From Bacteroidota bacterium (GTDB taxonomy: Bacteria > Bacteroidota > Bacteroidia > 2-12-FULL-35-15), in contig JAOQAG010000046.1 of assembly GCA_025963715.1 (NCBI GenBank), positions 1 to 64,000 of the forward strand: a stretch of 64,000 bases of DNA, read 5' to 3'. This document shows positions 7,079 to 64,000 of the stretch, in pieces; the stretch's first letter is position 1, and each line of letters opens with the position of its first letter. Both the position numbers and the translations under genes were made by a program. The notes below the pieces were generated by a model. It did no database searches. It was not told the DNA's origin and saw only the letters and a list, made by a program, of their open reading frames with translations.

Positions 7079-8989
7079 TTACATTTTTACCAGCCTTGTG
7101 TTCCATTTTTTTCCGCTGGCGGAAGTCAGACTCACGAGGTAAATTCCTTTGTTAAAATCAGCGCTTGGGATTTCTATACGCAATGGATTTGATCCTGTGT
7201 ATTGTTTTGAATAAACCAATTCTCCGAGCGTAGTATAAATTTGGATTTTCAGATCCTGTACTTTTTCATTTCCAAGATCAATGCATGCATTTTGTGTGGC
7301 TACCGGGTTGGGATACAATTTTATATTCATGCTTTGCTCCGCTGTATCAACAATGTCGGTGGTTGTTCCAACGCCTTTTAAAATCACGGCAGTGGTAGAC
7401 AAAGCTGGCAGCGTGATGGTAACGGTATTAGCCGTAACGGATGCTGTTCCGGCAAGCAATGCGTTGGAAGTGGCGGATACAAATGTTTCGGTAGCGGGTA
7501 ATGATTTTAATTGTTTGGTGGTATATGTTCCGTTCGGAATTGTAAAATTACTTACGTTGAGCGTTACTGTTTTAGAAGCGGACAACGAACGGTTGATAAG
7601 GATCACGGTAAGTGAATCGTTGGCGGTATTAAGGGATGAATATCCCGAAACGGTTGTTTCATCTGTGGAAACGGACGCAACACGCGTATGTTTACTGTAA
7701 CAGCTAAACAGATGCAATGTTTCCCACATGCCGGGGTACCAATACCAGGGCGAGAAGTATTCGACGCCATTATCAGCAAACGTACCGAGCACGGAGCCGT
7801 AACTCACGGAAGTGACATTGGCATTGTTGTTTGTAAAGCCGTATTCGGAAACACCCAGTTTTACACCATGATTGGGACCCATGTAATGATTGAGCCAGCG
7901 GTTGCAGCGTTCGAATACAAATTCCTGTGTGATGGAATTGTCCCAGCCGGAAGCGGCGGTTGTTTTTACGCCGTTGGCGCCGGGATAGGAATACGCGGTA
8001 TCAAAATAAATACGGTGCAATTGTACAATATCGGCGCTGTTGGTTTCATTCGGGTAGCTGTGAATGTCGATGACATCGAGCAAACGAATGCCGCTTGAAG
8101 CTTCCTCTTCCGAAACGCGCTTGATAAAAAATTCGAGCCAGGTATATTGCAATCCATCCGCAGCAGTAATTTTTGCATTGTTCCAGGCATACCACTGCCA
8201 CTCGGATGCAGGCACAGGACCGGTTAATTTAACGCCTGAAAATTTTGCACGCGCTTTTTTTGCAACGGCAAAATACAACTGCATAAATGCCTCGGCAGTA
8301 GGTTCGGTAGGCATTACATCGTCGTGCGTACCGTACCAGATATCCGGTTCATTGTCCATGCTCCAGTATTTGAGCACGTTGGGATTGTAGCTGAGCCCCG
8401 CGCTTCCAAACCAATGATCGAGGATCCCGACGGTTGAATCGGCGGGCCAGTTCTCTAAATATAAATTGGGATTGCCGTTCACACTTGCGGCGCTTCCGCC
8501 TGCACCATTCGGAACACCGCCACCGGCAAGGTTTTGCTGCGTACCACTCCACCACGTGGAACCGTTGTAAGCGTAATCATTAAAATTATTGGATGTATTG
8601 GATGCGGCTTTTCCGATGAGCTGAAAGCCAAACTGTGCTTGCACAGCGGGCAAACTATCCTGCAGTGTTTTTGCAACGTAATCCCAGTTGCTGGGATAAA
8701 TATTGTTGTACCAATCGGGGTGGCAGGTGAGCTTTAAACGCCAGTTGTATTTACTAGCGTTGTTTCCGCCATTTTCGCGCGTGAAATGCAACCCTGCATC
8801 GCGCATTAATTTCCATTGAGCAGCAGAAGTTGGCGAACCGGGATCATCAGAAAGATTGTTGTTTTTCCCGTAGATGTAGGGCGAAACAGGTTTTCTGCCG
8901 GAAGATGCATCTACGTTAACCGTGATGGTTTGCGCCAGCGCCTGAAATCCAATAAGTGTAGCGATGAGTGATAAATAGTTCTTTTTCAT
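7079..8989 (-). CDS. Glycoside hydrolase family 44 endoglucanase, T9SS-secreted
   Basis: A 636-aa secreted beta-glucanase. Signal peptide residues 1-20 end at ALAQ. Residues about 21-540 match GH44: the opening VSPYIYGKNNNLSDDPGSP, then SMDNEPDIWYGTHDDV with the acid/base Glu at residue 214, DIHSYPNE near 309-315, and GVSEYGFTNNN with the nucleophile Glu at 382. Family members hydrolyse internal beta-1,4 bonds of cellulose derivatives, xyloglucan or mixed glucans with retention. Residues about 555-636 form a type A T9SS sorting domain (LYPNPV..., KGIYLVSL..., ending TRLVKM), so the enzyme is probably anchored or released at the cell surface. No PUL (SusC/D) genes flank it. The exact substrate cannot be read from sequence. 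Confidence 0.88.
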   Translation of the reverse strand: MKKNYLSLIATLIGFQALAQTITVNVDASSGRKPVSPYIYGKNNNLSDDPGSPTSAAQWKLMRDAGLHFTRENGGNNASKYNWRLKLTCHPDWYNNIYPSNWDYVAKTLQDSLPAVQAQFGFQLIGKAASNTSNNFNDYAYNGSTWWSGTQQNLAGGGVPNGAGGSAASVNGNPNLYLENWPADSTVGILDHWFGSAGLSYNPNVLKYWSMDNEPDIWYGTHDDVMPTEPTAEAFMQLYFAVAKKARAKFSGVKLTGPVPASEWQWYAWNNAKITAADGLQYTWLEFFIKRVSEEEASSGIRLLDVIDIHSYPNETNSADIVQLHRIYFDTAYSYPGANGVKTTAASGWDNSITQEFVFERCNRWLNHYMGPNHGVKLGVSEYGFTNNNANVTSVSYGSVLGTFADNGVEYFSPWYWYPGMWETLHLFSCYSKHTRVASVSTDETTVSGYSSLNTANDSLTVILINRSLSASKTVTLNVSNFTIPNGTYTTKQLKSLPATETFVSATSNALLAGTASVTANTVTITLPALSTTAVILKGVGTTTDIVDTAEQSMNIKLYPNPVATQNACIDLGNEKVQDLKIQIYTTLGELVYSKQYTGSNPLRIEIPSADFNKGIYLVSLTSASGKKWNTRLVKM

Positions 8990-9458
8990 TTTGTTTGTAT
9001 TAGGTGCAAAATAAAATGGAGGAGAAATTGTGTTTGCAGTACTAATTTACAAATTTAATTGAAGGGTTGCCACAGATTCAGGGATTTTAAATTAAAAAAC
9101 GATTTAACTATTTATTCGAATAAACTTAAATTGATTTTAAATTCAATAAAGTGCTGTACTTATCAATTTTATTGAGTTAATTGACATGTCTTGTACCATC
9201 ATATTTGTCCAAAAATATTTTCGCAGGAAGCAACTGGTAAAATAAAAAACGCTGATATTTTTTTAAATACACTGAAAATAAAGGTTTTCAAAAGATCAAC
9301 AGAATTGGTGCCTGACTTCTATTTTATCTGTAAAATCAAAGTGATTTTATATTCTCTTACAAAAAATCACAAAAAAGTCAATAATAACAATACATACAGA
9401 CAATAATTACTCTCAAAAGTAAAAATTGTCCCAGAGGTAGAAAAGTGTCCATTGAAAT
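8990..9458. other. AT-rich gap without a supported gene
   Basis: This is a strongly AT-rich stretch between the GH44 gene (minus) and the accessory cluster (plus). A 71-codon open frame at 9191-9406 is rich in Lys, Ile and Asn, as expected of random AT-rich DNA, and shows no motif. No hairpin or repeat family seen elsewhere in the window was recognised here. Confidence 0.4.
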
Positions 9459-9506
9459 ATGATTTTAATGACGGAAGTTTGCGCGTTTCGTATTCAAATC
9501 CAAACT

Positions 9507-9713
9507 ATGGCCACTACTTCTCTCAGCATTACCATGTTCCAGGACCTAAAACGACTGGAATTAGCAAACATTTCAAACATACTCTTCAATTTTATGAAAG
9601 AGGAATTGCAGGAAGGAAATGTGATTGAAATTGAAATGGAGGATGCAACAACACCGAAAGAAACGATAAAGACAATGAAAGAATTACAGGCATTTAAAAA
9701 GAGGTTTCATTAA
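9507..9713 (+). CDS. Small hypothetical protein
   Basis: A 68-codon frame from the internal Met (MATTSLS...); upstream Mets at 9459 and 9468 could extend it to 84 aa. The product is acidic and helical in character, with EELQEGNVIEIEMEDATTP in the middle and a basic tail. No family is recognised. It lies at the head of a run of plus-strand accessory genes after a gene-poor AT-rich gap. The composition is more protein-like than neighbouring random frames, but no further support is available. Confidence 0.35.
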   Translation: MATTSLSITMFQDLKRLELANISNILFNFMKEELQEGNVIEIEMEDATTPKETIKTMKELQAFKKRFH

Positions 9714-9870
9714 TTATTGCATGGGTAAATTTACGGGTACAACACCGTGTTTTTACGGGTGCCGAAAATACCGTGTATTTACGGATGATTTTAGTTATTG
9801 AATGACATAGATTTGACAATACAAACTATTGTCAAACGAACTCAGAACTAAAACTTAAAACACCAGCAAA

Positions 9871-56632: not shown

Positions 56633-57028
56633 TTACCTTTTCCTTTTTTCTTTTCTTAAGCTTTCCAGTTTTTCTTCCATCAGCTTGTTTACTTTTTCCG
56701 ACAGCTCGTATTTTTTTTCGAGGTCGGAAATCTGGCGTTTACATGCTTTAAGCTCGTTGGCAAGATAATCCATCATATCCTCGCGCTTTACATACGGTTC
56801 CTGCTCTTCCTGCACCATAGACGGTAATTCTTTGCTGTAATATTTAAAAAAATCGTGATCGAGCACTCTGCAAATCTTCTGCAAAAGTCCGGTATCCATA
56901 TTTTCTTTTGCAAAAATTTTATACGCTACATCCCTGCTCCTGTTGATCTTTTTTGCAAACTCTGTCACAGAATAGCTGGATTTATTTACTACGTCTTTTA
57001 TCTTTTTGCCAATGTGTACCTGCGCCAT
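56633..57028 (-). CDS. HTH DNA-binding protein with coiled coil
   Basis: A 131-aa protein from the Met of MAQVHIGKKIKDV. The N-terminal half (about residues 1-60) is an XRE-like helix-turn-helix: GKKIKDVVNKSSYSVTEFAK, KINRSRDVAYKIFAKENM, DTGLLQKICRVLDHDFFKYY. The C-terminal half (about 75-131) is a Lys/Glu-rich coiled coil (ACKRQISDLEKKYELSEKVN...). It is divergent from the type III mod gene with about 100 bp between starts, a position suggesting a regulator of the restriction-modification genes. Such a controller is not standard for type III systems, so this role is inference only. Proteins of this layout also occur alone in Bacteroidota. Confidence 0.72.
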   Translation of the reverse strand: MAQVHIGKKIKDVVNKSSYSVTEFAKKINRSRDVAYKIFAKENMDTGLLQKICRVLDHDFFKYYSKELPSMVQEEQEPYVKREDMMDYLANELKACKRQISDLEKKYELSEKVNKLMEEKLESLRKEKRKR

Positions 57029-57106
57029 GCACAAAAGTCAATTTTTAGACTGTACAAAAGTTAAAAGATTGTATTCGTTTAATATACATGTTGTATTATT
57101 TTTTAA

Positions 57107-57114
57107 TACATTTG
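57107..57114 (+). promoter_or_regulatory. Candidate -7 box of the mod gene
   Basis: TACATTTG matches TAnnTTTG exactly. Transcription from it would start around 57118, seven bases before the first ATG (57125) and about 31 before the second (57149), which supports the second start. Confidence 0.45.
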
Positions 57115-57148
57115 AAAAATAATAATGTACCCGTTTTTTCGTGAAGAT

Positions 57149-58774
57149 ATGCCAACACTGCACTGGATAGGAAAAGAAAAGATCATCAACCATCATTTGG
57201 AAGTGCCGTACCGTGTATTAAATCACCACTACAATTTTACAGGCAAGAATACTGTTCGCAAAAGATCCAGCCAGGATAACATGATCATTCATGGCGATAA
57301 CCTGGAAGCATTAAAAAGCCTGTTGCCAAAATACGAAGGAAAAGTAAACTGCATTTACATTGATCCGCCTTACAATACCGGGAACGAAGGCTGGACATAC
57401 AATGACAATGTAAATCATCCGAAGATAAAAAAATGGCTGGAGAAAACATTGAGTGCGCATACCGCCGGGAAGGATGCAGGAATAGGATTGGATGACCTTA
57501 CGCGACATGACAAATGGCTGTGCATGATTTATCCGCGGCTAGCGCTCCTACATAAATTACTGGCGCCGGATGGCGTAATTTTTATTTCCATCGATGACAA
57601 TGAAGTGGCACACTTAAAGATTGTGCTGGACGAAATTTTTGGAGCAAATAATTTTTTAGCAACATTTTACTGGAAACGAACGTCCACACCACCAAGCCTT
57701 TCGAATGTGGTAAGAAAAAAACTGGAACCGCTGATCTGTTATCAGAAAACGGATACGAAAAAACAGTTTAACGGCGGTAATTCCGAAGGCGGCGATATGC
57801 CTTTGCTGAATGCGGGTAATGCACTAACGACGCTAAATTTTGGGAAAGAAAATATATTTTTTAAAGTAAAGGATGGCATCTACCGGAAGGGAATTTATGA
57901 TAAAACAACATTGCTGGAAGACATTGAAATTGCGAACGGACAGGCGGATAAGGACATTTTGCTGCAAGGTAATTTTAAGTGGACGCAGGATACATTAACG
58001 CGGGAAATAAGTGAAGGTACGCGTTTTTTTGTGAAGTCGGAGAAATTTAGCGTGCGCTACCAGCGGGACGGAGAGCGGATAAAAACGCCTTCTAATATTG
58101 TGAGCAAAGAGGAATGCAACATTGAAACGAATGAGGATGCGGCAAAACAGATCGAACATATTTTTGGCGACCGGCGTTTTTCGTTCCCAAAACCGGCTTC
58201 GCTGATCCAGTACCTGATCAATTTCATGTGCGATAAAAATTCGGTGATCCTGGATTCCTTCGCGGGAAGCGGAACTACTGCCGAAGCGGTATTAAATCTG
58301 AATAAACTGGACGATGGAAACCGCAAATTTATTTTGATTGAAATGGAAGACTATGCGGAAAGCATTACTGCTGAGCGTGTAAAACGTACGATTGACGGTT
58401 ATTCCGGAAAGGAAGGAACCAACGGAAGCTTTGATTTTTATTCGCTGGGAGCGACACTTTTTGATGAAGAAAACAATCTGAATGAAGAAGTGGAAACGGA
58501 AAAGATCCGTGAATATATCTGGTTCAACGAAACCCGTAAGCCTTATAAAATTAGTAAAAGCGCCTGTCTTGGCATGTATAACAATACCGGTTATTATTTT
58601 TTGTACAACAAGGAAGAAGCTACATCGCTTGATTATTCGGCACTTGCAAAACATGTAAAAACAAAAGCGGAATACTACATTGTGTATGCGGATAAATGCC
58701 TGCTGCCCGAAAGTTTTATGCAGCTGAATAATATTGAATTTAAAAAGATCCCACGCGATATAACACGTTTTTAA
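57149..58774 (+). CDS. mod: Type III restriction-modification system methyltransferase (Mod)
   Basis: A 541-aa beta-class N6-adenine (or N4-cytosine) DNA methyltransferase from the Met of MPTLHWIGKEKIINHHLEVP, the standard start of such Mod proteins; an ATG eight codons upstream would give 549 aa. The catalytic motif IV DPPYNTGNEGW is at about residues 72-82 and the AdoMet motif I LDSFAGSGTT at about 368-377, the IV-before-I order of the beta class. The variable middle (about 165-320) should carry the target-recognition domain. The recognition sequence cannot be read. No simple-sequence repeat for phase variation is seen. The res gene starts on the base after its stop codon. Confidence 0.92.
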   Translation: MPTLHWIGKEKIINHHLEVPYRVLNHHYNFTGKNTVRKRSSQDNMIIHGDNLEALKSLLPKYEGKVNCIYIDPPYNTGNEGWTYNDNVNHPKIKKWLEKTLSAHTAGKDAGIGLDDLTRHDKWLCMIYPRLALLHKLLAPDGVIFISIDDNEVAHLKIVLDEIFGANNFLATFYWKRTSTPPSLSNVVRKKLEPLICYQKTDTKKQFNGGNSEGGDMPLLNAGNALTTLNFGKENIFFKVKDGIYRKGIYDKTTLLEDIEIANGQADKDILLQGNFKWTQDTLTREISEGTRFFVKSEKFSVRYQRDGERIKTPSNIVSKEECNIETNEDAAKQIEHIFGDRRFSFPKPASLIQYLINFMCDKNSVILDSFAGSGTTAEAVLNLNKLDDGNRKFILIEMEDYAESITAERVKRTIDGYSGKEGTNGSFDFYSLGATLFDEENNLNEEVETEKIREYIWFNETRKPYKISKSACLGMYNNTGYYFLYNKEEATSLDYSALAKHVKTKAEYYIVYADKCLLPESFMQLNNIEFKKIPRDITRF

Positions 58775-61363
58775 ATGGAATTAAAATCATATCAGAAACA
58801 GGTGATCAGGGACCTTGCTGCGTATTTTGAGTATTATAAAAAATACGAAAATGCAGGCAGGGCCTTTAATACATACTGGACGGAGAAAGTGGGATTTTAT
58901 AATCCACTTTCGGGAGAGGGGATGCGGCCTTACCAGGACAATGTGCCGGAAGCGGTGCATTTGTGCATAAAGGTGCCAACGGCAGGCGGCAAAACGTTTA
59001 TTGCCTGCAATGCGGTTAAAACTATTTTTGACGCATTGCCGCCAACGAAAACAAAAGCGGTGGTGTGGCTGGTACCCTGGGGAAATTTGCTGAACCAAAC
59101 GGTAAACAATCTTTCGGATCCGGAACATCCGTATTGCCAGAAATTAAATGCGCTGTTCAATAATCGCGTAAGCGTATATCAAAAAAAGGAATTGCTGCAG
59201 GGCGCCAGCTTTAATCCATCGATTGTGCAGGAACAGCTGAGTATTATGGTGATGAATTATTCTTCTATCCGTTCCAAAAATAAAGACGATAAAAAAATTT
59301 ATGAGCAGAATGGTGCACTTGCTACGTTTACTTCAGGTAATGATGATGCGCATGTACTGGAAGGTTCGGATGAAACGGCGCTGATCAATATTATCCGGAA
59401 ATTAAACCCGGTGCTGATCGTGGATGAAAGCCATAATGCAGAAACCAAATTAAGCGTGGAAATGCTGCAGGATCTGAATCCGAGCTTTATACTGGATCTT
59501 ACTGCTACGCCAAAAGACAATGCAAACATCATCAGCATGGTGCCTGCTATTGAGCTTAAAAAGGAACACATGGTAAAATTACCGGTGATCGTTTACAATC
59601 AGCAGGATAAGGAGAGTGTGATCGAAAGTGCGCTTCATCTGCAGCAGCGGCTGGAAGAAATTGCAATGGAACAGGAAAAGAACGGCGGAAGGTATATCCG
59701 GCCAATGGTGCTATTCCAGGCACAATCAAAAGGGAAGGAAGAAAATACAACGTTTGATAAATTAAAAGAGCAGCTGATAAAAGTTGGGATAAAGGAAGAG
59801 CAGATAAAAATAAAAACGGCGAATAAAGATGAGTTGAAAGGGATTGACCTGATGGATAAAGAATGCCCGGTAAGGTTTGTGATCACGATCAATGCATTGA
59901 AGGAAGGCTGGGATTGTCCGTTTGCGTATATCCTTGCATCGCTTGCCGACAGGTCGTCGCCGGTGGATGTAACGCAGATCCTGGGCCGTGTGCTGCGCCA
60001 GCCTTACGCGATGAAACATGTAGATCCACTGCTGAATTTATCGTATGTGATCACGGCATCTGCAAAATTTAATGAAACGCTGCAAAGCATTATTAAGGGT
60101 TTAAAAGAATCGGGCTTTAGTGAAAAAGATTATCGTGAAAAAGATCTGATGCCGGAAGCAGAAAAATTAATTCCGGCAACGGCTGACCAGGAAATATTGT
60201 TTGATCCGGAACGTTTTTTCGTTAAGATCGGGAAAGGGCAAAAAGCAAATACGATGCTTGGCGAGATAGAAACGATTGCGGAAGCAGAAACGGTGGAGAT
60301 GGAAAAACAGATCGCCGAATATGAGAGCAATCCTTCGATGGAACGATTCCCGGAACTAAAAGCAAAACAATATCCCATGCGGCAGGATGTGGCTGTGCTT
60401 GCAAAATCAATGCTGCTACCACAATTTATGTCGCGCACGGAAGATCTGCATTTATTTGTAGCGGAAACAGACGGATTACAATTTTTGGAACGCAGGCCAT
60501 TACTGGAAGGTTTTAAGCTGTATGAAAAAGCGATCGATCTGAAATTTGAAGGTACGCCCTCCCGCTTGTACAAAGCCGATATTGAAGAAACGCGCCCGGA
60601 CGATTCGCGTGCAACATATTCTAAAATGGAAGATTCGCCGATCCAGAAAAAACTGATCGAATCCATTTTAGCAAAACCAAAAGACGCTCAGGTCAGGGAT
60701 CTCGTTCACCAGGCAATGCAATATATTGGAAATGTAGTAGCGGTTTCGGACGGTGATATAAAAAAATACATCAAGCGGATTTTAGAAAATATGGAACCGG
60801 AACAGCTCAAGGATTTTGCGATCAATTGCAGGTTGTATTCGGATCAGATCAAACATAAGATCATTGAACTGTCGGATGATCATGCTGAAAAACAATTTAT
60901 TGAACACAAGGAATTTGGCGCGATCCGCACAAAACCATTTTGGAAATTTCCGCAAACGCTGATCTTAAAAAAGCTGGGGCCGGATATCGGCAACTCACTG
61001 TATACGCATGAAAGCGAGATGAACAGTTTGGAAGAACAATTTATCATGCAGGTGGCGGGCGGCTCCAACATTGCTTTCTGGCATCGTAATCTTGTAAAGA
61101 ACGGCGGCTTTGCTTTGAACGGATACAAAGCCAATCATTACCCGGATTTTATCATCGTCACCAAAAAAGGAACGGTAATACTGGCAGAAACAAAAGGTGC
61201 CGACAGGGATAACCATGATAGTGCAGAAAAACTGGAGCTGGGAAAGATCTGGTCGGAATTATCAGGATCGGATAATTATAAATACTTAATGATCTTTGAA
61301 AAAAATGCTCCGAAAGGTGCTTATAATTTGGATAAAGCGGTGGAACTGATCCTGAAAATGTAA
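58775..61363 (+). CDS. res: Type III restriction endonuclease subunit (Res)
   Basis: An 862-aa SF2 helicase-nuclease that works only in complex with Mod. Walker A is PTAGGKTF (Lys73), and the Walker B box is DESH (217-220), the variant common in Res. VITINALKEGWDCPFAYILA and QILGRVLRQPYA are helicase motifs V and VI. The C-terminal endonuclease domain has a PD-(D/E)XK core: HYPDFIIV (Asp791), then LAETKG (Glu805, Lys807). All catalytic residues are present, so the enzyme looks intact. The ATG follows the mod stop codon (TAA ATG), so the two are one operon and probably translationally coupled. Length is slightly below the roughly 900-1000 aa of EcoP15I-type Res. Confidence 0.93.
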   Translation: MELKSYQKQVIRDLAAYFEYYKKYENAGRAFNTYWTEKVGFYNPLSGEGMRPYQDNVPEAVHLCIKVPTAGGKTFIACNAVKTIFDALPPTKTKAVVWLVPWGNLLNQTVNNLSDPEHPYCQKLNALFNNRVSVYQKKELLQGASFNPSIVQEQLSIMVMNYSSIRSKNKDDKKIYEQNGALATFTSGNDDAHVLEGSDETALINIIRKLNPVLIVDESHNAETKLSVEMLQDLNPSFILDLTATPKDNANIISMVPAIELKKEHMVKLPVIVYNQQDKESVIESALHLQQRLEEIAMEQEKNGGRYIRPMVLFQAQSKGKEENTTFDKLKEQLIKVGIKEEQIKIKTANKDELKGIDLMDKECPVRFVITINALKEGWDCPFAYILASLADRSSPVDVTQILGRVLRQPYAMKHVDPLLNLSYVITASAKFNETLQSIIKGLKESGFSEKDYREKDLMPEAEKLIPATADQEILFDPERFFVKIGKGQKANTMLGEIETIAEAETVEMEKQIAEYESNPSMERFPELKAKQYPMRQDVAVLAKSMLLPQFMSRTEDLHLFVAETDGLQFLERRPLLEGFKLYEKAIDLKFEGTPSRLYKADIEETRPDDSRATYSKMEDSPIQKKLIESILAKPKDAQVRDLVHQAMQYIGNVVAVSDGDIKKYIKRILENMEPEQLKDFAINCRLYSDQIKHKIIELSDDHAEKQFIEHKEFGAIRTKPFWKFPQTLILKKLGPDIGNSLYTHESEMNSLEEQFIMQVAGGSNIAFWHRNLVKNGGFALNGYKANHYPDFIIVTKKGTVILAETKGADRDNHDSAEKLELGKIWSELSGSDNYKYLMIFEKNAPKGAYNLDKAVELILKM

Positions 61364-61587: not shown

Positions 61588-61671
61588 AAAAAAAAGAAAG
61601 CGAGAGATTGCTCTCCCGCTTTAAATGTTTTCACAACGGAATAATCCTTATTGTGATTTGCTTCAAAATGT
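61588..61671 (-). ncRNA. tracrRNA of the type II-C CRISPR-Cas system (predicted)
   Basis: The minus strand holds, in order, an anti-repeat TTTTGAAGCAAATCACAAT, then AAGGATTATTCCGTT with a GGA/TCC nexus hairpin, and GTGAAAACATTTAAAGCGGG. It ends in a stem AAGCG.GAGA/TCTC.CGCTT (61597-61622) followed by eight T (61588-61595). The plus-strand copy TTGTGATTTGCTTCAAAA (61651-61668) reads like the 5' half of the GTTGTGATTTGCTTTC-type repeats I recall from Bacteroides type II-C arrays; no search was done. Length about 84 nt, located between res and cas9 and antisense to the direction of cas9. No CRISPR array lies in the window, so the matching repeat could not be tested directly. Confidence 0.75.
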
Positions 61672-61675
61672 GATG

Positions 61676-61705
61676 CAAATGTAAACTAAATATTGATATG
61701 GCAAG
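61676..61705 (-). promoter_or_regulatory. Predicted tracrRNA promoter overlapping the cas9 start
   Basis: Minus-strand CTTG (61705-61702), 18-base spacer, TACATTTG (61683-61676), an exact -7 box. The predicted start of transcription near 61671 fits the anti-repeat. The -33 end lies within codons 2-3 of cas9. Confidence 0.6.
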
Positions 61706-64000
61706 AAAAATTTTAGGATTGGATTTGGGAACTAACTCAATTGGTTGGGCGGTGGTGGAAATTGATGAAAATGGAAATCCAATACGCATCATTGCAATGG
61801 GATCAAGGATAATTCCTTTAAATTCTGACGATAGAGACCAATTTCAAAAAGGACAATCTATTACCAAAAATCAAGATCGAACAAAAAGCCGAACTCAAAG
61901 AAAGGGATATGATAGGAAGCAATTAAAGAAAAACGATTTAAAAAAAATATTAGAAAAATACAATATTTATCCTTCGGAGGATTTATTAAAATTACCTAGC
62001 CTTGATCTATGGAAGCTACGTAGTGATGCTGCATCTATGGATAACAATATCAGTGCAGAACAATTGGGAAGAATTTTTTATATGCTTAATCAAAAAAGAG
62101 GGTATAAATCGGCCAGAAGTGAAGCCAATCAAGACAAAAAAGATACTGAATATGTTGCAGAAGTAAAAGGTAGATACACTCAACTTAAAGAAAGGGATCA
62201 AACGTTAGGACAATATTTTTATGATGAGTTACTTGCTTCTAAGCAAAAAAACGAATACTTCCATATTAAGAAAAAAGTATATCCAAGAGAGGCATACATT
62301 GAAGAGTTTGATGCAATTATTACATCTCAAAAAGAGAAACATTCCTTTTTAACAGCAGCAGTAATTGAATCATTGAAAAATGAAATTATTTATTATCAGC
62401 GAAAACTTAAATCTCAAAAAGGATTAGTTAGTGTATGCGAATTTGAAGGGTTTGAAACAACTTATACAGACAAAGAAACATTAAAAGAAAAAACTATTTT
62501 TACTGGACCAAGAGTTACTCCTAAAACATCACCATTATTTCAATTATGCAAAATTTGGGAAATAGTTAATAATATTTCATTGAAAATAAAAACACCAGAA
62601 GGCTCTAAATATAAGTGGGAAGATAGAATACCAACACTCGACGAAAAGAAAGAAATTGTCGATTATTTATCAAAGAATTCGATTTTGAGTTTTGCTAAGC
62701 TACTCGACATCTTAGCCTTAAAAAAAGAGCAGGTATATGCAAACAAACAATTATTAAAAGGGCTACAGGGAAACATAACTTATTCTGAAATATATAACAT
62801 TTTAGATAATGATAAATATCTGCAATTCAATGTAAACATTATTCCCTCTAAACACAATGCTTTATTAGTAGATAAAAAAACAGGCGAAATTCTTTCCGAA
62901 AGAGAAAGTTTACAATTAAATCCGACTATTGAAAAAGAACCATTTTATCAATTATGGCATACTATCTATTCCATTAAAGATATGGATGAATGTAAAAATG
63001 CGTTGATAAAGAATTTTGAAATAACAGAGGATATAGCAGAAAAACTATCAAAATTAGACTTTAATAAACAAGCTTTCGGGAACAAGTCCAATAAAGCAAT
63101 TCGTAAAATATTGCCTTACTTAATGGAAGGTTTTGATTATTCTCAAGCTTGCAGCTTAGCTGGCTATAATCATTCTAATAGTTTGACTAAAGAAGAACAA
63201 TCCAGTCAAAAAATCGATGACAAATTAGAGCTATTACCCAAAAATAGCCTTCGTCAACCTGTAGTTGAAAAGATTATTAATCAAATGATCAATGTTGTAA
63301 ATGCGATATTAGAAAAACATGGGAAACCTGATGAAATTCGTGTTGAATTAGCACGTGAATTAAAGCAAAGCAAAGATGAACGAAATGATACAGATACTCA
63401 AAACATCCTCAACAAAAAGCTACATGAAGAAATAGGCAAAAGGTTAACAGAATTGGGACTACCAACAACAAAACGTTATATTCAAAAATATAAATTCATA
63501 TTTCCTTCCCGTGACAAAAAGATAAAAGAAGCTCAGGTAGTAAATCAATGCATTTATTGTGGAGAATCATTTAACATCGCTCAAGCTTTGAGTGGAGATG
63601 ATTTTGATGTAGATCATATTATCCCTAAAGCATTACTTTTTGATGATTCACAAACTAATAAAGTTTTAGTGCATAGAAGTTGTAATTCTAACAAAACAAA
63701 TCAAACAGCCTACGATTATATTTTTAAGAAAACTGGAGAAAAAGGGCTAGAGATTTATTTAAAAAGAGTTGACGATTGGTTTAAACTTGGTATAGTTTCC
63801 TATGGAAAAATGCAAAGATTGAAGGTTTCTTTTGAGGAATATAGTGAACGTAAAAAGCAAAAAAAAGAAACGGAAACCGATAAAAAACTATGGGAACATT
63901 TTATTGATCGTCAATTACGCGAAACTCAATACATTTCTCGGAAATCAAAAGATATTTTAAAAAAAATCTGTAACAATGTTACAGTTACAGAAGGTACTGT
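61698..64000 (+). CDS. cas9: Cas9 endonuclease, type II-C (partial, runs off the window)
   Basis: An RNA-guided DNA nuclease. I translated 767 codons from the ATG at 61698 to the window end without a stop; the 3' part is missing. RuvC-I is KILGLDLGTNSIGWAVVE with Asp9. The arginine-rich bridge helix (about residues 56-80) is KSRTQRKGYDRKQLKK. Then come LNQKRGYKSARSE and YYQRKLKSQKGLVS, both frequent in type II-C proteins. RuvC-II is EIRVELAREL with Glu550. The HNH domain has CIYCGESF (Cys618/Cys621), DVDHIIPKALLFDDS with catalytic His640, and CNSNK with Asn663. RuvC-III (His-x-x-Asp) lies past the edge. The spacing resembles compact II-C enzymes. AT content is clearly higher than in the flanking core genes, which suggests transfer. 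Confidence 0.95.
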   Translation, partial: MARKILGLDLGTNSIGWAVVEIDENGNPIRIIAMGSRIIPLNSDDRDQFQKGQSITKNQDRTKSRTQRKGYDRKQLKKNDLKKILEKYNIYPSEDLLKLPSLDLWKLRSDAASMDNNISAEQLGRIFYMLNQKRGYKSARSEANQDKKDTEYVAEVKGRYTQLKERDQTLGQYFYDELLASKQKNEYFHIKKKVYPREAYIEEFDAIITSQKEKHSFLTAAVIESLKNEIIYYQRKLKSQKGLVSVCEFEGFETTYTDKETLKEKTIFTGPRVTPKTSPLFQLCKIWEIVNNISLKIKTPEGSKYKWEDRIPTLDEKKEIVDYLSKNSILSFAKLLDILALKKEQVYANKQLLKGLQGNITYSEIYNILDNDKYLQFNVNIIPSKHNALLVDKKTGEILSERESLQLNPTIEKEPFYQLWHTIYSIKDMDECKNALIKNFEITEDIAEKLSKLDFNKQAFGNKSNKAIRKILPYLMEGFDYSQACSLAGYNHSNSLTKEEQSSQKIDDKLELLPKNSLRQPVVEKIINQMINVVNAILEKHGKPDEIRVELARELKQSKDERNDTDTQNILNKKLHEEIGKRLTELGLPTTKRYIQKYKFIFPSRDKKIKEAQVVNQCIYCGESFNIAQALSGDDFDVDHIIPKALLFDDSQTNKVLVHRSCNSNKTNQTAYDYIFKKTGEKGLEIYLKRVDDWFKLGIVSYGKMQRLKVSFEEYSERKKQKKETETDKKLWEHFIDRQLRETQYISRKSKDILKKICNNVTVTEGT

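What the first reader, a model, noticed from the sequence alone, without database searches (positions are those of the whole stretch)
61698..64000. Cas9 with compact N-terminal half and intact RuvC-I/II and HNH residues
His640 of HNH and Glu550 of RuvC-II sit about 200 residues earlier than in the Streptococcus enzyme, consistent with a small recognition lobe. The first 767 residues read without interruption. PAM, total length and array content are unknown because the window ends before RuvC-III. Its PAM and activity cannot be predicted from this part.
Basis: partly seen in the sequence, partly recalled or inferred. Interest (0 to 1): 0.6.

Follow-up and report, generated by a model that had tools for sequence, protein, structure and literature searches.

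The report
Swapped-in Cas9 in ordinary CRISPR locus
The window ends inside an intact Cas9 gene of an ordinary type II-C CRISPR immune locus (the rest lies on the same contig), and comparison with sister genomes shows that this Cas9 was exchanged for an unrelated one while the guide-RNA genes, repeats and memory-making genes around it stayed the same.

Summary
The reading frame at 61698 continues past the window to a normal stop: a 1268-residue Cas9 with all catalytic residues (D9, E550, H640, N663, H826/H827, D830). It is followed by cas1, cas2 and a 31-repeat, 30-spacer array with 47-nt repeats, which starts on this contig and continues on a second contig through a 127-nt exact overlap. A tracrRNA gene lies upstream on the opposite strand. 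No csn2 or cas4 is in the locus, so it is type II-C. The recognition half is short relative to SpCas9, but the whole enzyme is not compact.

The less expected result is a mosaic. Same-genus loci share Cas1 (85-87%), Cas2 (89-90%), the repeat (45-46 of 47 nt) and, in one case, the tracrRNA region (93% over 120 nt), but their Cas9s are only 24-39% identical (1432-1539 aa). This Cas9 is instead 70-72% identical to Pedobacter and Chryseobacterium Cas9s, whose Cas1s are only 46-55% identical. Trees and AU tests reject a common history. In-situ Cas9 exchange is already described in Flavobacteriales, so this is a clear new example of a known process. PAM unknown: no credible protospacer was found.

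The parts
61698..64000 (+). cas9, type II-C, first 767 of 1268 codons. The rest of the locus lies outside the window on the same contig (C37 numbering continues the window's): cas9 to 65504, cas1 65501-66442 (+), cas2 66485-66829 (+), MgtC-family gene 66834-67553 (-), CRISPR array from 67656, continued on contig C29:1-2202 (31 repeats, 30 spacers, crRNA sense is the minus strand)
   Evidence: cas9; cas1 and cas2; MgtC; array:
61588..61671 (-). predicted tracrRNA (about 84 nt): anti-repeat 61651-61671, conserved core TAAGGATTATTCCGTTGTGAAAACA, terminator hairpin 61598-61623 followed by a U run
   Evidence: 22-bp duplex with the repeat 5' half, interaction -21.1 kcal/mol against -3.6 for shuffled repeats; fold z-score -6.2; core exact in 55 of 68 loci with a tracrRNA core
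61676..61683 (-). TACATTTG, Bacteroidota -7 promoter box (TAnnTTTG) of the tracrRNA
   Evidence: such a box upstream of the tracrRNA in 55 of 65 loci against 5.7 in shuffles; consensus from PMC10309648
57125..61363 (+). type III restriction-modification pair (mod, res) directly upstream; a neighbour, not part of the CRISPR system
   Evidence: PADLOC MTase_III and REase_III, PF01555 and PF04851

Best explanation
This is a complete type II-C CRISPR-Cas9 immune locus in an uncultured Bacteroidota lineage. SHOWN BY SEQUENCE: intact Cas9, Cas1, Cas2, a 30-spacer array, and a tracrRNA gene with promoter box, anti-repeat and terminator. INFERRED: each repeat is read from its own internal promoter (TTG-N18-TATCTTTG) toward cas2, the crRNA pairs with the tracrRNA over 22 bp, and Cas9 loaded with this dual RNA cuts matching DNA next to an unknown PAM. 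SHOWN BY COMPARISON: the cas9 gene has a different ancestry from the tracrRNA, repeat, cas1 and cas2 around it. INFERRED: a cas9 of the Pedobacter/Chryseobacterium kind replaced another cas9 in situ. The near-universal guide-RNA scaffold of Bacteroidota II-C loci is what plausibly lets such swaps work.
For: Intact catalytic residues and full-length family match. Gene order cas9-cas1-cas2-array with nothing else of CRISPR type. Array joined by a 127-nt exact contig overlap. tracrRNA duplex, core and promoter. Repeat-borne TAnnTTyG in 26 of 37 distinct repeats against 1.65 in shuffles, mostly 18-19 nt after TTG. Mosaic: Cas1 85-87%, Cas2 89-90%, repeat 45-46 of 47 nt in G002 (two loci) and G029, but Cas9 24-39%; 120 nt upstream of cas9 93% identical to G002:C41. 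Cas9 70-72% to Pedobacter/Chryseobacterium whose Cas1 is 46-55%. The Cas1 tree puts this locus with same-genus loci (98*) and AU rejects joining it to the Cas9 sisters (p 2.6e-9); the Cas9 tree does the reverse (p 6e-62 and 4e-44). cas9 GC3 is 21.5% against 47% in cas1, with a sharp step.
Against: No expression or cleavage data. No protospacer was found, so interference is not shown. cas9 genes are AT-rich in all relatives too, so the composition step is only partial evidence of import. The direction of exchange is inferred from parsimony. The genome is a draft in 51 contigs.
Confidence: 0.9

Rival explanations
1. Ordinary vertically inherited II-C locus; the Cas9 differences between sister genomes are only fast divergence of Cas9 relative to Cas1.
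For: Cas9 evolves faster than Cas1 in general, and Cas9 and Cas1 distances still correlate weakly over the set (r 0.19).
Against: The same Cas9 is 70-72% identical to Cas9s of other orders while their Cas1s are only 46-55% identical; rate alone cannot reverse the order of relatedness. AU tests reject both shared topologies. Cas9 lengths in the genus range from 1189 to 1539 aa.
Confidence: 0.03
2. The adaptation module (array, cas1, cas2) and tracrRNA moved onto a resident cas9, rather than cas9 moving in.
For: Trees show incongruence, not direction. The array is separated from cas2 by an MgtC gene here.
Against: Repeat, Cas1, Cas2 and tracrRNA flanks on both sides of cas9 are those of the genus, so two flanking segments would have to be replaced while the middle stayed. 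cas1 GC3 matches the host (47% against about 45% for most long window ORFs) and cas9 does not.
Confidence: 0.1
3. The mosaic is an assembly or binning artefact.
For: Draft assembly of 51 contigs; contig C37 ends inside the array.
Against: tracrRNA, cas9, cas1 and cas2 lie on one 67.9-kb contig, and the cas9 stop overlaps the cas1 start by 4 nt. A chimera would need two misjoins exactly at the gene ends. The same pattern recurs in independent genomes G002, G029, G005 and G030.
Confidence: 0.02

Closest known systems
Type II-C CRISPR-Cas9 of Bacteroidota (Pedobacter chinensis L062, Chryseobacterium sp. c4a L063)
   Same: 70-72% identical Cas9 along its whole length, tracrRNA core identical, same gene order cas9-cas1-cas2-array
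   Different: Cas1 only 46-55% identical, repeat 3' half different (28 of 47 nt matching Pedobacter, ungapped)
II-C loci of the same genus (G002:C41, G002:C58, G029, G005, G030)
   Same: Cas1 69-87%, repeat 43-46 of 47 nt; tracrRNA core shared, with a one-base insertion in G002:C58 and except in G029
   Different: Cas9 24-39% identical and 1189-1539 aa; the G029 tracrRNA has another tail (TAAGGCTATAAGCCG...) behind an anti-repeat that still fits the shared repeat
Flavobacterium columnare and F. psychrophilum II-C systems (PMC8092290, PMC10309648)
   Same: tracrRNA upstream of cas9, repeat-borne promoter read toward the leader; cas9-cas1-cas2
   Different: Those papers name only the TTG (-33) part in repeats; here a matching -7 box TAnnTTTG is seen. 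Their PAMs (NNNNNTAAA, NNAAAG) cannot be assumed here
In-situ Cas9 shuffling in Flavobacteriales (PMC12669027, Extended Data Fig. 9)
   Same: Close Cas1 with distant Cas9 in the same locus architecture
   Different: Here in another Bacteroidota lineage, with Cas9 relatives in other orders, and with tracrRNA and repeat followed separately
Solved Cas9 structures: 21dz (1154 aa), CbCas9 8iyq (1442 aa), ThermoCas9 9ar4, Nme1Cas9
   Same: Cas9 fold and active-site residues
   Different: 20-24% identical in the structural alignments listed (21dz is a sequence match only); no PcrIIC1-like gene beside this Cas9

Membership tests
Cas9 | RuvC-I/II/III and HNH catalytic residues in one protein | tested here: met
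   D9, E550, H640, N663, H826/H827, D830; TIGR01865 474 bits
Type II CRISPR-Cas | cas1, cas2 and CRISPR array next to cas9 | tested here: met
Type II CRISPR-Cas | tracrRNA with anti-repeat complementary to the repeat | tested here: met
   22-bp duplex, terminator, conserved core; expression not tested
Subtype II-C | no csn2 and no cas4 in the locus | tested here: met
   Genes from cas9 to the array and beyond it are cas1, cas2, MgtC, cyanophycin synthetase. The genome-wide Csn2 search is not informative because its controls did not ring
Subtype II-C | Cas9 groups with II-C Cas9s | tested here: inconclusive
   Close relatives are Bacteroidota Cas9s followed by cas1-cas2, and nearest folds are Nme1Cas9 and ThermoCas9, but no tree with II-A and II-B reference Cas9s was built
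Subtype II-D (Cas9d) | NF049971 over its cut-off, cas4 present | tested here: not met
   77 bits against cut-off 375; no cas4 in the locus
PcrIIC1-associated Cas9 (CbCas9) | PIN-domain PcrIIC1 gene in the locus | tested here: not met
   No extra gene between cas9, cas1 and cas2; only MgtC before the array
Active interference system | protospacers with a PAM in phages or plasmids | tested here: inconclusive
   No credible match in phages, plasmids, 36 congeneric genomes or 8 viral scans; one 20-nt hit is 22 of 30 and judged chance

The most novel reading that the evidence does not exclude
Bacteroidota II-C loci are a resident platform (leader, repeats with built-in promoters, tracrRNA, cas1, cas2) onto which widely different Cas9s (about 30% identical, 1189-1539 aa) are exchanged, working with practically the same dual RNA. 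That would run against the rule from laboratory tests that dual RNA and Cas9 are interchangeable only between close relatives (PMC3936727).
Probability: 0.4. Interest if true: 0.6.

Novelty: new member of a known kind. Interest (0 to 1): 0.35.

Why it matters
As a Cas9 it is one of hundreds of Bacteroidota II-C enzymes. What gives it some value is the natural experiment: this locus and G002:C41 carry a 93% identical tracrRNA region and repeats alike in 45 of 47 nt, but Cas9s about 30% identical and differing by 270 residues in length. This makes the question of how tightly Cas9 and its guide RNA must co-evolve directly testable, and suggests why Cas9 can be exchanged in this phylum.

Tried and rejected
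PAM from protospacers: 30 spacers searched in phages (only AT-rich chance hits at E 1-5), in 36 congeneric genomes (only the array itself), the C29 part of the array (28 spacers) in plasmids (only repeat-spaced matches, probably similar arrays, in Phocaeicola and Prevotella records), and eight 19-26-nt spacer parts in viral contigs. The only hit (L180, L181) matches 22 of 30 nt in an Ala-rich tape-measure-like gene and was rejected as chance. Arrays of Cas9 relatives against phages gave nothing for L062 and repeat-like DNA in Riemerella phages for L063. Self-targeting by the tRNA-like spacer: no second copy in the genome within 3 mismatches. tracrRNA tail following Cas9 or Cas1: neither correlation is significant over 23 loci. 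The genome-wide csn2 search was uninformative. Low GC3 as proof of import was downgraded because all cas9 genes in the set are AT-rich. Full-length Cas9 was not folded: it exceeds the 1200-residue limit and part lies outside the window, so only the window's 767 residues were folded.

Full report
WHAT IS THERE. The frame at 61698 is open to the window end. The window is the first 64,000 bases of contig C37 of a 4.91-Mb, 51-contig genome, and the contig runs on to 67,934. Read on, the gene is a 1268-residue Cas9 ending at 65504 with every expected catalytic residue: D9 in RuvC-I, E550 in RuvC-II, H640 and N663 in HNH, H826/H827 and D830 in RuvC-III. TIGR01865 covers residues 5-1262 at 474 bits; Pfam RuvC_III and HNH_4 are over cut-off.

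COMPACT OR NOT. The recognition half is short relative to SpCas9 (E762, H840 from memory). An AlphaFold2 model of the window's 767 residues (mean pLDDT 79, pTM 0.41) finds Nme1Cas9, ThermoCas9 and SaCas9 first and SpCas9 well below. TM-scores are low (about 0.25) because domain packing in the apo model differs from the complexes, so this ranks folds and does not give a superposition. The whole enzyme is 1268 aa with 438 residues after the RuvC-III Asp, so it is not a compact Cas9.

THE REST OF THE LOCUS. cas1 (313 aa, type II) overlaps the cas9 stop by 4 nt, cas2 (114 aa) follows, then an MgtC-family gene on the other strand, then a CRISPR array. The array runs off the contig, but the last 127 bases of C37 are exactly the first 127 of C29, giving one array of 31 repeats of 47 nt and 30 different spacers of 29-30 nt, followed by a cyanophycin-synthetase-like gene. 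No csn2 or cas4 lies in the locus, so by architecture it is II-C; the genome-wide Csn2 search was not informative. A type III restriction-modification pair lies directly upstream.

GUIDE RNAs. On the strand opposite cas9, at 61588-61671, lies a tracrRNA candidate: an anti-repeat forming a 22-bp duplex (one bulge) with the first 23 nt of the repeat (interaction -21.1 kcal/mol, shuffled repeats mean -3.6), small hairpins and a strong terminator. Its core TAAGGATTATTCCGTTGTGAAAACA is exact in 55 of 68 loci with a tracrRNA core, 66 of the 68 opposite to cas9. A Bacteroidota -7 box TAnnTTTG stands upstream of the tracrRNA in 55 of 65 loci (5.7 in shuffles). In crRNA sense the repeat reads GTTGTGATTTGCTTTCAAAATGTATCTTTGACTTATTGATAAACATC: TTG, 18 nt, TATCTTTG. 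Over 37 distinct repeats of relatives, TAnnTTyG occurs in 26 (1.65 in shuffles, none on the reverse strand), mostly 18-19 nt from the TTG. The duplex stops just where this box begins. Repeat-borne promoters are already proposed for Flavobacterium II-C arrays (PMC8092290, PMC10309648); in the passages read they name the TTG only, and the paired -7 box adds to that. Transcription itself is inferred.

THE MOSAIC. Nine of 36 same-genus genomes, this one included, carry a related Cas1. In G002 (two loci) and G029, Cas1 is 85-87% and Cas2 89-90% identical, and the repeat is the same in 45-46 of 47 nt, but the Cas9s are 1432, 1539 and 1511 aa and 24-39% identical depending on the alignment. The 120 nt upstream of cas9, including the tracrRNA, are 93% identical to G002:C41. 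Conversely this Cas9 is 70-72% identical along its whole length to Cas9s of Pedobacter and Chryseobacterium, whose Cas1s are 46-55% identical. The Cas1 tree puts this locus with the same-genus loci (98*); the Cas9 tree puts it in a group with Pedobacter, Chryseobacterium and others (97*). AU tests reject each gene following the other's tree (2.6e-9; 6e-62 and 4e-44; quick trees, groups chosen after seeing identities). Over 23 loci the 3' half of the repeat follows Cas1 (r 0.45, p 0.0005) and not Cas9 (r 0.09). cas9 has GC3 21.5% against 47% for cas1, but cas9 genes are AT-rich everywhere in the set.

HOW IT MOST LIKELY WORKS. Shown by sequence: all parts of a II-C system are intact. Inferred: crRNAs are made from repeat promoters toward cas2, pair with the tracrRNA, and guide Cas9 to cut DNA beside a PAM that could not be found. 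Inferred from comparison: this cas9 replaced another one between a resident tracrRNA and cas1. The exception that helps is G029, whose Cas9 is the most distant: it has another tracrRNA tail behind an anti-repeat that still fits the shared repeat, as if a distant Cas9 needed its own scaffold while others use the common one.

WHAT IS KNOWN. In-situ exchange of Cas9 is reported for Flavobacteriales (PMC12669027). Laboratory work found dual RNA and Cas9 interchangeable only between close relatives (PMC3936727). The natural pair described here is a good test of how strict that rule is. The system itself is an ordinary II-C locus. Interest 0.35, new member of a known kind.

Noticed in passing
L033:127-156 (contig C29): One spacer (crRNA sense CAGGCGGTGTGTACCCGGTTCGATTCCCGG) looks like the T-arm end of a tRNA gene, perhaps a phage tRNA or an attachment site; not found elsewhere in the genome within 3 mismatches, and its 3' 26 nt not in viral contigs.
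   Followed up: partly
Riemerella phage records HQ396194 (31626-31745), MZ995504, OR089151, PP067982 and others: Riemerella phages carry DNA 73-91% identical to parts of the Chryseobacterium II-C array L063, mainly its repeats, possibly phage-borne repeat units or mini-arrays; the record named Shigella phage Henu10 (OQ791282) carries the same stretch, so its host label may be wrong.
   Followed up: no
L155:13400-17932 and 8632-9762 (G029:C8): A 1511-aa, very divergent Cas9 with its own tracrRNA tail lies in the same locus as the genus-type cas1-cas2 and repeat; a 377-aa AAA/KAP-type ATPase gene lies between cas9 and cas1.
   Followed up: partly
G002:C41 and G002:C58 (L156, L143): One genome carries two II-C loci with nearly the same Cas1, Cas2 and repeat but two very different Cas9s (1539 and 1432 aa).
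   Followed up: partly
L002:6834-7553 (contig C37:66834-67553, beyond the window): An MgtC-family gene stands between cas2 and the array; in sister loci such as G029 and G002:C58 the array follows cas2 closely.
   Followed up: no
window 56633-61363: Type III restriction-modification pair (mod/res) directly upstream of the CRISPR locus, with an HTH regulator-like gene at 56633-57034 on the other strand.
   Followed up: partly
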